A stretch of DNA of 36,958 nucleotides, taken from positions 1-36,958 of the IMG/VR virus record IMGVR_UViG_3300028800_000207; one strand, written 5' to 3'. The stretch comes from a virus. This document shows, piece by piece, positions 4,898-16,966 of the stretch (its first letter is position 1; every line of letters begins with the position of its first letter). The notes under the pieces were generated by a model. That model was not told the origin of the DNA and made no database searches. It saw only the letters and a list, made by a program, of their open reading frames with translations. Position numbers and translations under genes: made by a program.

Positions 4898-5027
4898 CCG
4901 TATTATGCGGATTGTGTATTGGACCCCTGGATTAACATTTAACAAGGTGGTTAACAAGTTATTGGAAGAGTACATAGAGAAGTGTGAGGAGAATAGGGGA
5001 TCGAAGTTTCCTGAGAGGGTTCAGTAG
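4854..5027 (+). CDS. Short ribbon-helix-helix-like protein
   Basis: A 57-aa protein with AAGGAG (4844-4849) at good spacing before ATG. It starts KKLVSIRMDLSIHDRIMRIV, a short strand followed by a helix, then GLTFNKVVNKLLEEYIEKC, resembling the second helix of Arc/MetJ-type repressors that dimerise and insert a strand into DNA. Its TAG is one base before the ATG of the MerR/alpha-CTD gene, so the two are translationally coupled. A role as autorepressor at the palindrome at 4535-4551 is inferred. The fold call rests on pattern only. Confidence 0.65.
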   Translation: MKKLVSIRMDLSIHDRIMRIVYWTPGLTFNKVVNKLLEEYIEKCEENRGSKFPERVQ

Positions 5028-5028
5028 G

Positions 5029-5772
5029 ATGGATAAGCTGAGCGACTATTTGATGGTTAGAGAGGCGGCCGAATTACTTGGAGTCACCCCAAATACCATG
5101 AGAAATTGGGAGAGAGAGAAAAAAATTGTATCCTATCGCAATCCCATCAATAAATACCGCCTCTATAGAAAAGAAGATATTGATAAATTTATGCTGGTCA
5201 TAAAGGGAGAGCCTCCGGTGACTGATGCTGAATTGCAAAACAAAAAAGATAATGAAATAGCGCTTGCGAATCTTTATAAGCGCCAACAAATAGAGGCTGA
5301 TGAATGTGCCAAAAAAGAATTGGCGTCTCGCATGCGACGCATAGAAGAACTTCAAGCATTACTTACTGAAGCAAATAAAGAAATTGAGCGGTATAAACAC
5401 ATAGATAAAGAGCTTGAGAGTTATAAGCTTAAGGAGCGCGAATCGCAGGCAGCCGATCTTTGTGATCAGATACTTAAGATACTTTCTTCTGATGGCTCTT
5501 TTCTGGAAAAAGAAGATTTGTGTAGAAATATCTTGGGAATAAATGCCTCCGCTGGCACTCAGCTTGCCTCAAAAGAGCTCGACAATAGGCCGATAGATAT
5601 ACTCGAACTATCAGTTAGGGCACATAACTGTTTATTAGCTGCTAAATTTAATACTATCGGTGACATACAATGCATGGGAAAAGAGGGTCTGTTGCGCATA
5701 AAGAACTTTGGTAAGAAAAGTTACGAAGAAGTATTGATTGCGTGTCGTAGAAATAAAATAAAGATTAGTTAG
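5029..5772 (+). CDS. MerR-type HTH / coiled-coil / RNA polymerase alpha-CTD fusion regulator
   Basis: A 247-aa protein starting at ATG 5029, one base after the RHH stop; an upstream in-frame ATG at 4984 lies inside the RHH gene and is less likely. Residues 8-55 form a MerR/excisionase-like head (VREAAELLGVTPNTMRNWE, then YRLYRKEDIDKF). Residues 85-145 are a charged coiled coil. Residues 188-247 match the bacterial RNA polymerase alpha-subunit C-terminal domain: ILELSVRAHNCL, then TIGDI, then LLRIKNFGKKSYEE. By alignment from memory with E. coli alpha, R197, N200, G228, K230, S231 and E234 correspond to R265, N268, G296, K298, S299 and E302 (DNA contacts or nearby), and E193 to E261 (sigma contact). 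It may redirect or compete with host polymerase at promoters. The cassette has its own promoter and lies between terminase repeats. Confidence 0.8.
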   Translation: MDKLSDYLMVREAAELLGVTPNTMRNWEREKKIVSYRNPINKYRLYRKEDIDKFMLVIKGEPPVTDAELQNKKDNEIALANLYKRQQIEADECAKKELASRMRRIEELQALLTEANKEIERYKHIDKELESYKLKERESQAADLCDQILKILSSDGSFLEKEDLCRNILGINASAGTQLASKELDNRPIDILELSVRAHNCLLAAKFNTIGDIQCMGKEGLLRIKNFGKKSYEEVLIACRRNKIKIS

Positions 5773-10980: not shown

Positions 10981-11032
10981 CCCCTGGATTCTAGGATATG
11001 CTCTTCACTCCTATTCCCCTCCAGGGGTTTTT
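10981..11032 (+). terminator. Rho-independent terminator upstream of the toxin cassette
   Basis: CCCCTGGA (10981-10988) and TCCAGGGG (11020-11027) pair perfectly across a 31-base loop and lead into TTTTT. Confidence 0.7.
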
Positions 11033-11049
11033 ATTACTTGTAAAACAAG

Positions 11050-11127: not shown

Positions 11128-12021
11128 ATGTATTTCGGAAAACGCTATGCGATAGTTATATCGTTGTTAGCACTGGGCAATTCCGTATCGGGATCGCACC
11201 TATTTCACAACCCATTGAGTCAGCGCTTCAGTAAGCACATGGGTAGTTTGTTGTTGGCCAAGAACTATGGCGGACATTTTAACTACATGCCTAAGCGCAA
11301 GATAACCGGTCTTGAGGTTGCTCCTATTGTGGTTGCTGGTGGTGGGACACTGAGTGCGCCAGTTGTGGTGGCAACAACAGTGGCGGTGACCACCGGTCTG
11401 GTTATTGGTGAGCTTATCGCTACGGGTGAATCTCCAACTGCTCAGAAGATTGGCGACGTTGCCTGCGAGATAGGTGACAAGGTTGCCAAAACGGTTGATG
11501 ATATATGGCCTGAAGAGATCGCCAAAGAAAAGTACGAAGAAGATCAAAAGAAGCGCGACGAAAACGAAGCTATTTGGTCTGCTCGTATGGATGCCATCCA
11601 GCGTGGAGACGTTTTTCCGCCCCTATATGACACCGCTGACAAAGGCAAATCGAACGATAAGGGTGGTAAGTCCAGCGACAAAGGTGGCAAATCGAATGAT
11701 AAGGGCGATAAATCTGGTGATAAAGGTGACAAGTCCAAGGGCGATGATAAGGGTGACAAAGAAAGAGTTCAGGTTACCCCTGAAGAACTTGCTAAGGCTT
11801 GGCAGGAAATAAAACAAGATTACAAGTACAGTCCTCAAACAGGCAGTCATCATTTACAAAAAGGTGGTACTCCTGTTGCCCCAGGTATTGATGAAGTGTG
11901 GCGAGATAGAACTCATAAAGGTATAGAGTGCAATAAGAATGGTAAGCACATGGGTGAACTTGATCCGGTAACTCGGCAAATCTATAAAGATGGTGTTCCG
12001 GGTAGAAAGACAGGTAAATAA
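11128..12021 (+). CDS. Secreted colicin E3-type ribonuclease toxin
   Basis: A 297-aa protein. Residues 1-23 are a signal peptide (h-region AIVISLLALG, likely cut after VSG). Residues 64-98 are Gly/Ala/Val rich and could insert into a membrane. Residues 169-212 are a repetitive Asp-Lys-Gly/Ser linker. Residues 232-297 resemble the RNase domain of colicin E3/cloacin: the catalytic spacing D260-xx-H263-xxx-E267 equals D55-H58-E62 of E3, then GKHMGELDP parallels its DGQHLGSFDP and PGR parallels the late PKR. E3-type enzymes cut 16S rRNA in the decoding centre. Tyr64 of E3 is not conserved. The gene has its own promoter and is coupled to the next gene. Target and use are inferred. Confidence 0.72.
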   Translation: MYFGKRYAIVISLLALGNSVSGSHLFHNPLSQRFSKHMGSLLLAKNYGGHFNYMPKRKITGLEVAPIVVAGGGTLSAPVVVATTVAVTTGLVIGELIATGESPTAQKIGDVACEIGDKVAKTVDDIWPEEIAKEKYEEDQKKRDENEAIWSARMDAIQRGDVFPPLYDTADKGKSNDKGGKSSDKGGKSNDKGDKSGDKGDKSKGDDKGDKERVQVTPEELAKAWQEIKQDYKYSPQTGSHHLQKGGTPVAPGIDEVWRDRTHKGIECNKNGKHMGELDPVTRQIYKDGVPGRKTGK

Positions 12022-12023
12022 CT

Positions 12024-12401
12024 ATGATGAACGAGTTGTATAAAGGTGATTTTTGCTGCATCTCTATGGAAGATGCGGTCCGAGATGATCGCTGGATGGT
12101 TGACTATGATCATGAGGGCAAAAGTCACTTCATGATGCAAGTATGGCCTTACAACGCTAATAAGTTCATATTCTTCTTTTGTCCTTGGTGTGGCAAGGGG
12201 CTTAAGCCTGAGTGGGTTAAAGCTGCAGCTGCGGGAGAAGATGCTCCTTATGCCATATTTGTTAAACGAGATCTTTCTATTGAGGGATTTGATGATGACG
12301 GATTCCACAAGGGAAGAATTGATCCATTTACGAGAAAGTATTGCACGGCACCTATTCCAGGAAGAATGATAGTAACAAAACCTTCGGACTCCTCCGAATG
12401 A
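12024..12401 (+). CDS. Zinc-knuckle protein with a degenerate E3-RNase motif (candidate immunity or decoy)
   Basis: A 125-aa protein, two bases after the toxin stop. C53PWC56 forms a zinc-knuckle motif. Residues 80-114 align with the toxin active region: VKRDLS then IEGF, HKGRIDPFTRKY and IPGR, against VWRDRT then IEC, HMGELDPVTRQIY and VPGR. Three residues including the catalytic His are missing, while Asp83 and Glu87 remain. It does not resemble the known E3 immunity protein, and has no signal peptide. As partner of a toxin it may act as immunity or decoy, or be an inactive relic or a differently targeted protein. A strong terminator follows. Confidence 0.55.
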   Translation: MMNELYKGDFCCISMEDAVRDDRWMVDYDHEGKSHFMMQVWPYNANKFIFFFCPWCGKGLKPEWVKAAAAGEDAPYAIFVKRDLSIEGFDDDGFHKGRIDPFTRKYCTAPIPGRMIVTKPSDSSE

Positions 12402-12432
12402 TGATGTAGTTGATATACATCATGGATTGCTG

Positions 12433-12470
12433 CCCCCGCGAGAGTTTAAATACTTTCGTGGGGGTTTTTT
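12433..12470 (+). terminator. Strong rho-independent terminator after the toxin pair
   Basis: A 12-bp stem (12433-12444 with 12453-12464, two G-U pairs) is followed by six T. It closes the cassette. Confidence 0.85.
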
Positions 12471-12507
12471 ATTATACTCATGGTGAGTTCTATGAAAGGG
12501 AACGGCT

Positions 12508-15026: not shown

Positions 15027-16966
15027 ATGGCTATAACAACCACCAGTACACTGCCGGCACCAGTTCAGCAAAGCTTTAGCTATAAATTGCTAAGCGTCCC
15101 TGTGCCGAACATGATTCATAAAATTCCTGCGATGAAGAAGAATATGCCCCGTAATGGTGGTACTACGCTTCGTATGCGCCGGTATAATCCTTTAAACACT
15201 GCGATGGTTCCGTTGGGAAATAGCGGTGTCACGCCTCCGCCACAAAATCTGACCGCAGTCGATATCGATGCGAAGATTTCGTTTTACGGGACCTACGTAA
15301 GCATCAACGAGCAGGTGACGCTTGGATCTTGCTGAGGCGTCAATAAACCAAAGGTGATTACTTGGAAAACCTAAACCTTATCTAGCAATTAAGGCATGGC
15401 AACCAGAGGCAAGTGTTAATTATGATAATTGCGAACGTGAAGAGCTCTCATTTCTGCTTCAAGACGCTTGCGAATCTCAAGAATTTCTTGGGAAACCGCC
15501 GGGGTTCCTTGTCTGCCCTTTTGCGCACCTGTGTGCTTGAAAGTTGCACGCATTTGAAGCATGATTTCTGCCTGCCGCTTCTTGATGACCAGATAAGGCA
15601 TCATGATCTCGCAGAGATGAGTGCATCTATCGCCGCTCGCCATCCATCTGTAAACAGCTCGCCTGGAATTCTTAGGAGTTTGCTTAGCTGTATAGCTTGC
15701 GCGCCTTCCTCCAAATACATTAACAAGCCAATCAATCAATCCAATATCAGTATTAGTTACTTCGATATTGGTCTGATAATGAGGAGCTCCTGTTTTTGGA
15801 TTAGAGCTAAATGCGCCAATATATATCGATCCTTCTCCGTCAACTATTCCAGCAAGATACGCGATCTCTTCAATAGAATATTCTTTTCTTGTATAGGGAT
15901 ATCTGTTCATTTCGCCAGCTGCGTTATGTATTGTGAATATACATTACAGAATATCATAATTAATGGACAGCCGCAACGACTAAGCCCCTTGGCTCATAGC
16001 AATATGAGATGCGATAGTCTGTTCTCATGTGAAAACATGAGAGGGAGATCCGAAGAGTTTTCCCCGCCATATAGAAAATATATGGTCAATAAAAGTAACA
16101 GTATAATTACAAATAGTCAGAACCAAGATCCGGTTCTCAACGAATGCGCAGCACGTCTTGGTGTAAGTCTTCGCCAAACCGAAGATCAACTTACCCGAGA
16201 TATGTTGGCTTCAACTGCTGGGTTCATCAACTGTACCGGTGGTGTAAACGGTGATAATCCTACCGAGATTACCCGTTCTGATGTTGATACCGTTGTCCGT
16301 TCATTGTTGAACAACAACGCGTACACAATAATGGATAAACTTGTTGTCCATTTAAAATCTTCTCTGATTGACTTGGAAGCCCTATGGGGCAACAAGGGGC
16401 AAGCGCAAGCAGCCTGAACGACTAAGTGAGAAGACCTCGAAAGAGGATGCGATAGTCTGAACACTATGGAAACATAGTGAGGGAGATTCGAAGAAGTTTC
16501 CCCGCCCGAAAGGGTCATTAAAGTAACAGAATTGAACATTGAGGGTGAAGATAAATTTGGTACGGCTCCTGTTCGTGATGCCTACTTTGCACTTTGTTCA
16601 ACAAACCTCACGGGCAACTTGGACAACGTGGCAGGATTTATCCAAAAGAACCAATATCCAGCACCTATGAATGCATTGCGTTCAGAATGGGGTGCTATTG
16701 GTAACCTTCGGTTCCTCATTTCATCTATTGGTTCGACAACACTGCAAGGTTCATCACTCGGTGCGACCGTGTACAACATATTCTGTGTTGGTATGGAAGC
16801 ATACGCATGTATCGAGCAGGACGGATATAGCGCGAGCTTTATCTATCGTCCTCCAATATATGACGGACCATTGGCGCTTAACGCTTCTGTGGGCTATAAG
16901 TTCGCTGAAGTGCCACGCATCACCAATGATCTCTGGGTTATCAACTTACGTGCCACCCTTGCTTAA
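15027..16966 (+). CDS. Major capsid protein, N4-gp56 family, split by two group I introns
   Basis: Exons 15027-15322, 16117-16336 and 16535-16966 join to 315 codons plus stop. Exon 1 has the family pattern (NMIHKIPAMKKNMPRNGG, RMRRYNPL, YGTYVSINEQVTL); exon 2 continues QNQDPVLNECAARLG, then TRDMLAS; exon 3 begins NIEGEDKFGTAPVRDAYF. The first junction falls in a Leu codon (CT|T), the second between Asp and Asn. Frames close exactly, and the joined protein runs without gap against what I recall of the family. Unspliced, translation stops after exon 1, giving a useless 102-aa product. AAGGAG at 15014-15019 sets the start. The protein forms the icosahedral shell. Confidence 0.9.
15323..16116 (+). 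mobile_element. Group I intron 1 in the capsid gene (794 nt)
   Basis: P1 pairs exon GACGCT (15317-15322, U-G at the splice site) with GGCGTC (15336-15341). P10 pairs exon 2 TCAG (16117-16120) with CTGA (15332-15335). P7 is GACTA (15978-15982) with TAGTC (16015-16019). P8 (15993-16008) has a GCAA loop and P9 (16024-16041) a GAAA loop. The last intron base is G. A homing endonuclease gene lies in the P6 extension on the opposite strand. Subgroup not determined. Confidence 0.9.
15416..15910 (-). CDS. LAGLIDADG homing endonuclease, antisense within intron 1
   Basis: A 164-aa protein with one LAGLIDADG motif, LAGIVDGEG at residues 19-27, whose final acid would bind the metal; single-motif enzymes act as dimers on near-palindromic sites. 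Downstream, IEVTNTDIGLIDWLVNVFGG is typical of the fold's second part. It is encoded opposite to the capsid transcript, so it needs its own promoter; none is obvious. Its stop falls within the P6 stem of the intron. It probably cuts intronless capsid genes and spreads the intron. A plus-strand frame through the same region (15413-16417) is not a gene. Confidence 0.85.
   Translation of the reverse strand: MNRYPYTRKEYSIEEIAYLAGIVDGEGSIYIGAFSSNPKTGAPHYQTNIEVTNTDIGLIDWLVNVFGGRRASYTAKQTPKNSRRAVYRWMASGDRCTHLCEIMMPYLVIKKRQAEIMLQMRATFKHTGAQKGRQGTPAVSQEILEIRKRLEAEMRALHVRNYHN
16337..16534 (+). mobile_element. Group I intron 2 in the capsid gene (198 nt, no ORF)
   Basis: P1 pairs exon AATGGAT (16330-16336) with GTCCATT (16346-16352), U-G at the splice site. 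P10 pairs AACA (16535-16538) with TGTT (16342-16345). P7 is GACTA (16420-16424) with TAGTC (16453-16457). P8 (16435-16446) and P9 (16462-16479) both have GAAA loops. The last base is G. From P7 onward it is very similar to intron 1, so the two share ancestry. It carries no endonuclease gene. Confidence 0.88.

What the first reader, a model, noticed from the sequence alone, without database searches (positions are those of the whole stretch)
11128..12021. Phage-encoded secreted colicin E3-type 16S rRNase
A signal peptide, membrane-like segment, flexible DKG linker and a C-terminal domain with the E3 catalytic spacing (D260, H263, E267) and later GKHMGELDP. E3 domains are known from colicins and bacterial polymorphic toxins. 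Carriage by a virulent-looking phage, with its own promoter and terminator, is unusual: it might kill competitors, act after lysis, or be imported back into infected cells.
Basis: partly seen in the sequence, partly recalled or inferred. Interest (0 to 1): 0.82.

Follow-up and report, generated by a model that had tools for sequence, protein, structure and literature searches.

The report
Phage-borne secreted ribosome-cutting toxin with immunity
A phage, probably infecting environmental chlamydia-like bacteria, carries a gene for what looks like an exported toxin that cuts bacterial ribosomes as colicin E3 does, next to a gene that probably neutralises it, in a genome slot where related phages carry similar or different toxin-immunity pairs.

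Summary
The ORF is real (11128-12021, 297 aa), with D260/H263/E267 as stated. Its C-terminal ~90 residues are a divergent colicin-E3-type (Tox-ColE3, PF09000) domain. The direct Pfam score is below the cut-off (16.8 vs 22 bits), but HMMs built without the window find it at 6e-16 (phage relatives) and 5e-9 (bacterial E3 toxins only); a sister-phage homologue passes the cut-off; the relatives' profile has colicin E3 as best PDB match; an AlphaFold model ranks colicin E3 first. DUF6980 genes follow E3 toxins in three other phages of the group and other toxin-like ORFs in a Chlamydiota genome and a polymorphic-toxin locus, so it is probably the immunity gene. The same slot in another sister phage holds a CdiA-CT(ECL)/CdiI-type pair, a known 16S rRNase family. 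So this is a variable toxin-immunity cargo slot in a podovirus-like group, distinct from MuF toxins. Binning evidence points to Chlamydiota hosts. Ribosome cleavage, export, immunity and delivery are inferred. New variant of a known kind.

The parts
11128..12021 (+). toxin gene, 297 aa
   Evidence: ORF; HMM of phage relatives 5.8e-16
11128..11193 (+). signal-peptide-like N-terminus (residues about 1-22)
   Evidence: hydropathy and pattern shared with L052, L036, L073; no dedicated predictor available
11311..11424 (+). Gly/Ala/Val-rich hydrophobic segment, residues 62-99
   Evidence: similar segments in L052, L036, L121, L070, L073
11638..11763 (+). low-complexity DKG/K-rich linker, residues about 171-212
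   Evidence: sequence
11749..12018 (+). E3-type ribonuclease domain
   Evidence: alignments A1 and A5, HMMs, AF2 model pLDDT 80.6 / pTM 0.68, fold search best rows colicin E3
11905..11928 (+). codons D260..H263..E267, aligned with the colicin E3 catalytic D-H-E
   Evidence: invariant in A5, numbering
11947..11949 (+). H274, the second conserved histidine of Tox-ColE3
   Evidence: invariant in A5; role discussed in PMC3482391
12004..12006 (+). R293, conserved C-terminal arginine
   Evidence: invariant in A5
12024..12401 (+). partner gene, 125 aa: DUF6980-like (CC...CPWCG), likely immunity protein
   Evidence: DUF6980 HMM without window 2.2e-9, next ORF 0.29; co-directional, 2 nt after toxin stop
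12276..12371 (+). E3-like C-terminal tail of the partner gene, aspartate and first histidine lost
   Evidence: PF09000 12-15 bits; hhalign 92.8 %; bacterial E3 HMM 1e-6
10981..11036 (+). terminator-like repeat after the upstream DUF6496 gene
   Evidence: CCCCTGGA...TCCAGGGG-TTTTTATTA read from the sequence
12432..12475 (+). intrinsic terminator closing the toxin-immunity unit
   Evidence: 14 pairs, 8 G-C, T-run

Best explanation
It is a two-gene toxin-immunity cargo cassette of the polymorphic-toxin kind. Gene 1 encodes a protein with an export signal, a hydrophobic segment that may help cross a membrane, a flexible linker, and a C-terminal metal-independent ribonuclease of the colicin E3 type, predicted to cut 16S rRNA in the decoding site. 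Gene 2 encodes a DUF6980-type protein that most likely binds and blocks that nuclease in the infected cell. The cassette is expressed in the infected cell; the toxin is moved out of the cytoplasm and leaves by secretion or at lysis, then stops translation in neighbouring bacteria, or in cells taken by rival phages, that lack the immunity. Shown by sequence: the domain homology, conserved catalytic residues, pairing with DUF6980 in relatives, and the variable slot. Inferred: ribosome cleavage, export, entry into target cells, immunity activity, ecological role.
For: Catalytic domain: HMMs 5.8e-16 and 5.5e-9; L052 homologue over the PF09000 cut-off; L052 domain vs colicin E3 PDB chains 4e-4; A1 profile best PDB hit 1e44 colicin E3; fold search: colicin E3 chains and CdiA-CT ECL (4ntq) fill ranks 1-5; D, H, E, second H and R invariant. 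Immunity: DUF6980 gene directly downstream of E3 toxins in L052, L036 and L121, and of a toxin-like ORF in Chlamydiota L115 and in a polymorphic-toxin locus L122. Cargo slot: L073 carries Ntox21 + CdiI_N, both matching 4ntq, E. cloacae CdiA-CT/CdiI, a 16S rRNase cutting between A1493 and G1494 (PMC9086364); L082 carries a pretoxin HINT domain.
Against: Direct PF09000 score of the window domain is below the cut-off. Fold-search scores are low in absolute terms (Z 4.4, Foldseek E 0.4) and four of five models were less confident. The chromosomal DUF6980 genes sampled in Pseudomonadota stand alone, with no toxin seen beside them, and the window member matches DUF6980 only through a home-made HMM; its model was poor. 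The partner carries an E3-like tail of unknown purpose. No known receptor-binding or translocation domain was found in the N-terminus, so delivery is unexplained.
Confidence: 0.6

Rival explanations
1. The toxin acts inside the infected cell: it shuts off host translation, or the pair works as a toxin-antitoxin / superinfection-exclusion module, and the N-terminal hydrophobic stretch is not an export signal.
For: E3-type domains occur in phages as small, apparently cytoplasmic pairs next to repressors (Gordonia phages L127, fecal phage L128).
Against: Four slot proteins (window, L052, L036, L073) keep a signal-like N-terminus and a second hydrophobic segment; the cytoplasmic versions lack these; partner families differ.
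Confidence: 0.13
2. Decayed or drifting remnant: the domain is too diverged to be active and the partner is a fusion scar (immunity gene joined to the stump of an orphan E3 cassette).
For: Sub-threshold Pfam score; loop between E267 and GKHMG shorter than in colicin E3; partner tail has lost the aspartate and first histidine.
Against: Both ORFs are intact; all residues invariant among the relatives plus a colicin E3 fragment are kept in the toxin; operon layout and terminator preserved.
Confidence: 0.15
3. Effector aimed at the eukaryotic (protist) host of an intracellular bacterium, not at bacteria.
For: Binning evidence for Chlamydiota hosts, which live inside cells; secreted-looking proteins are common in the slot.
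Against: Paired immunity-type genes, including a CdiI match, make sense only if bacterial ribosomes are at risk.
Confidence: 0.07
4. Virion-packaged toxin delivered with phage DNA, in the manner proposed for MuF toxins.
For: Slot lies inside the head-gene cluster between portal and capsid.
Against: No MuF domain; signal-like N-terminus; in L052, L036 and L121 the cassette is on the strand opposite to the portal.
Confidence: 0.05

Closest known systems
Colicin E3 / cloacin DF13 cytotoxic domain (PF09000, Tox-ColE3)
   Same: C-terminal domain homology, D-H-E catalytic spacing, conserved second histidine and C-terminal arginine, similar predicted fold
   Different: No colicin receptor-binding/translocation domains detected; signal-like N-terminus; partner is DUF6980-like, whereas the listing read gives Imm-Cloacin and Imm45 for Tox-ColE3 and names no virus among its carriers (PMC3482391)
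CdiA-CT(ECL)/CdiI(ECL), Ntox21 + CdiI_N
   Same: 16S rRNase with dedicated immunity; a relative occupies the same slot in sister phage L073
   Different: Different sequence family from the window toxin; the known system is delivered by CdiB/CdiA
MuF polymorphic toxins of temperate phages (PMC5576092)
   Same: Phage-encoded polymorphic toxins
   Different: MuF toxins carry a MuF domain and occur in temperate phages of Firmicutes; here no MuF domain, an export-type N-terminus, no integrase seen
Secreted (T2SS/MafB-like) polymorphic toxins; SAR2788-family and Bosea E3 toxins (L113, L118)
   Same: Signal-like N-terminus + short body + E3 domain in one protein, followed by a small gene
   Different: Found on plasmid records, not in phage genomes; different neighbouring genes
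Gordonia phage and fecal phage E3-type pairs (L127, L128)
   Same: E3-type domain carried by phages with an adjacent partner gene
   Different: No signal-like N-terminus, beside repressor/HTH genes, other partner family

Membership tests
Tox-ColE3 / Cytotoxic (PF09000) | score above Pfam curated cut-off (22 bits) for the window protein itself | tested here: not met
   16.7-16.8 bits for the C-terminal piece, none for the full protein; sister homologue L052 at 26.2-29 bits passes. Filed as a divergent homologue, not as a Pfam-called member
Tox-ColE3 / Cytotoxic (PF09000) | catalytic Asp-His-Glu plus second conserved His and Arg | tested here: met
   D260, H263, E267, H274, R293 invariant in A5
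Tox-ColE3 / Cytotoxic (PF09000) | statistically supported homology to known E3 domains | tested here: met
   HMM of bacterial PF09000 proteins 5.5e-9; A1 profile best PDB hit colicin E3
Tox-ColE3 / Cytotoxic (PF09000) | E3 ribonuclease fold | tested here: inconclusive
   colicin E3 chains are the best rows but Z only 4.4
Tox-ColE3 / Cytotoxic (PF09000) | cleavage of 16S rRNA in the decoding site | not testable with these tools
   needs ribosomes
Polymorphic toxin-immunity systems | variable C-terminal toxin domains at a shared locus | tested here: met
   E3 in window, L036, L052; Ntox21 in L073; PT-HINT in L082, in the same stretch between portal and capsid genes
Polymorphic toxin-immunity systems | cognate immunity gene directly downstream | tested here: met
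   gene position: co-directional DUF6980-like gene 2 nt downstream; same in L052, L036, L121; CdiI_N in L073. Protection itself untested
Polymorphic toxin-immunity systems | N-terminal trafficking module | tested here: inconclusive
   signal-like N-terminus only; no known trafficking domain
DUF6980 (PF22400) | score above Pfam cut-off (27 bits) | tested here: not met
   window gene gives no PF22400 hit at E<=1; an HMM of nine relatives finds it at 2.2e-9; L052, L036, L115, L116 pass. Filed as DUF6980-like only
Colicin (bacteriocin) proper | receptor-binding and translocation domains, cloacin-type immunity | tested here: not met
   no Pfam match of these kinds in the N-terminal part or in the partner
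MuF toxin | MuF domain | tested here: not met
   no MuF match

The most novel reading that the evidence does not exclude
A group of podovirus-like phages of intracellular Chlamydiota carries a dedicated slot for exported polymorphic toxins that converge on the 16S rRNA decoding site through two nuclease families (E3 and CdiA-CT ECL), each with its own immunity gene: phage-borne bacteriocins, used between infected bacteria that share one host cell. A divergent branch of DUF6980 would be an unrecognised immunity family.
Probability: 0.3. Interest if true: 0.82.

Novelty: new variant of a known kind. Interest (0 to 1): 0.64.

Why it matters
Phage-borne polymorphic toxins were known chiefly as MuF proteins of temperate Firmicutes phages (PMC5576092) and as a type VII-linked cassette in a mycobacterial temperate phage (PMC7849713, abstract). 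Here a different phage group, with no integrase seen and likely infecting chlamydia-like bacteria, carries exported ribosome-targeting toxins with immunity genes. If confirmed, infected cells would double as toxin producers, rivalry among phages or intracellular bacteria would become testable, and a protein family of unknown function would gain a role.

Tried and rejected
Single-protein searches with the toxin or partner in viral contigs and phages gave no relatives; the portal protein was needed to find sister phages. Profile scans with E3 alignments in viral contigs gave only the two known sisters or could not run. Direct phmmer of the window domain to PDB gave only chance hits. The AF2 model of the partner was too poor to use (pLDDT 47). 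Considered 'DUF6980 is an immunity family throughout': rejected, since six DUF6980 genes in Pseudomonadota have no toxin seen beside them. Considered a shared N-terminus with swapped C-terminal domains between L052 and L073: no significant similarity, only similar architecture. PADLOC gave no hit. GroEL identity did not separate candidate hosts.

Full report
WHAT IS THERE. The window is one virus record, 36958 bp, with a 144-bp terminal direct repeat of 98.6% identity, so probably a whole genome. It has Erf-like recombinase, RusA, terminase, portal, capsid, tail and tail-fibre genes; no integrase appeared among the proteins scanned. The reported ORF is real and the residue numbers are right.

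THE DOMAIN. The full-length protein has no Pfam, PHROG, NCBIfam or PDB hit; the C-terminal piece alone gives PF09000 at 16.7-16.8 bits, below the 22-bit cut-off. To get relatives I used the portal protein, which found 345 relatives in viral contigs, 80 kept. Two of them encode toxin homologues: L052 (6307-7815 -) and L036 (13546-15201 -). L052 passes the PF09000 cut-off and matches colicin E3 chains at 4e-4 with D, H and E aligned. A third sister, L121, was found through its DUF6980 gene. HMMs built without the window rank the toxin first among 221 window ORFs: 5.8e-16 (phage relatives) and 5.5e-9 (bacterial E3 toxins L113, L114, L118, all PF09000). Across window, L052, L036, L114, L118, L113 and a colicin E3 fragment, D260, H263, E267, H274, G276, D279, P280, K287 and R293 are invariant (A5; column numbers there count from residue 208). 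[quoted passage not shown] In L036 the E3 domain is followed by about 220 further residues, unlike the others.

THE PARTNER. Two bases after the toxin stop begins a 125-aa gene on the same strand; the only strong terminator follows it. In L052, L036 and L121 the gene at this place is DUF6980 (PF22400) or its close relative. The junction between the two genes runs from a 37-nt overlap to a 4-nt gap. DUF6980 also directly follows a toxin-like ORF in a Chlamydiota genome (L115) and in a locus with a large polymorphic-toxin-like protein, an immunity-like gene that resembles SUKH by eye, and an orphan toxin-like ORF (L122). An HMM of nine DUF6980 proteins, window excluded, finds the window partner at 2.2e-9. 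Its last 45 residues resemble the C-terminal half of the E3 domain without the aspartate and first histidine, where other members end in a TDEWWKKRGL-like tail. I infer an old fusion of an immunity gene with the stump of an orphan E3 cassette. Caveat: six DUF6980 genes found in 398 Pseudomonadota genomes show no toxin beside them, so the immunity claim concerns only the divergent toxin-linked branch.

THE SLOT. Between the portal-side small genes (DUF6496) and the scaffold/capsid genes the relatives vary (53 loci hold both flanking markers after the portal). L073 carries a signal-like 489-514 aa protein ending in Ntox21 with a CdiI_N gene behind it; toxin end and immunity match 4ntq_A and 4ntq_B, E. 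cloacae CdiA-CT/CdiI, which cuts 16S rRNA between A1493 and G1494 like colicin E3 (PMC9086364). L082 carries a PT-HINT domain. L070 carries a 626-aa protein of similar build with no Pfam match. In L052, L036, L121, L070 and L073 the cassette is antisense to the head genes; in the window it is sense but fenced by terminators. This is the layout of a mobile cargo gene.

HOST. Portal relatives occur in 10 of 232 Chlamydiota genomes (8 strong ones beside the seed) and, apart from the seed, none strong in 398 Pseudomonadota (Fisher p = 3e-4 for strong matches without seeds). Those fetched lie on contigs no longer than about 41 kb, so they are phage contigs binned with the genomes, not shown to be integrated. 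Other phyla, Dependentiae above all, were not tested.

NOVELTY. E3-type domains in polymorphic toxins are known; the listing read gives Imm-Cloacin and Imm45 as their immunity proteins and names no virus (PMC3482391). MuF toxins are phage-borne but built differently (PMC5576092). No paper held mentions DUF6980. Small cytoplasmic E3-type pairs exist in Gordonia phages and a fecal phage contig, so phage carriage as such is not unique. New variant of a known kind.

MECHANISM. Best model: export-type polymorphic toxin with an E3-type 16S rRNase and a DUF6980-type immunity protein, used against competitors. Domain identity is well supported; immunity fairly; export, entry, target and ecological role are inference.

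Noticed in passing
window 15027-16966: The major capsid gene is interrupted twice; the first insert carries an antisense homing-endonuclease ORF (15416-15910), the second matches a group I intron below the gathering score (28.9 bits, E 4.8e-5). L036 has an uninterrupted capsid gene.
   Followed up: partly
window 4984-5772: MerR-type HTH fused to an RNA polymerase alpha C-terminal domain (PF03118, 4e-18), perhaps a phage transcription-hijacking protein.
   Followed up: no
L006 12584-14224, L012 12372-14006: Related phages carry a complete GroEL gene in the late region near the capsid gene.
   Followed up: partly
L056 10807-13058: Slot holds two secreted-looking proteins, one AAA-ATPase-like by eye, neither with an assigned role.
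   Followed up: no
L127 1165-2518, L128 2435-2978: E3-type domains beside repressor/HTH genes in Gordonia phages (annotated HicA-like) and a fecal phage contig; the partner genes resemble each other, suggesting an E3-type toxin-antitoxin system in phages.
   Followed up: partly
L114 1-1130: Chlamydiota genome with a PT-VENN + PF09000 toxin followed by a DUF7683 gene, a candidate immunity family.
   Followed up: no
L061 17789-18511, L082 4803-5618: Sister phages encode secreted-looking proteins with long Gly/Ala-rich hydrophobic tails that end in IPFLP, possibly membrane-active cargo.
   Followed up: no
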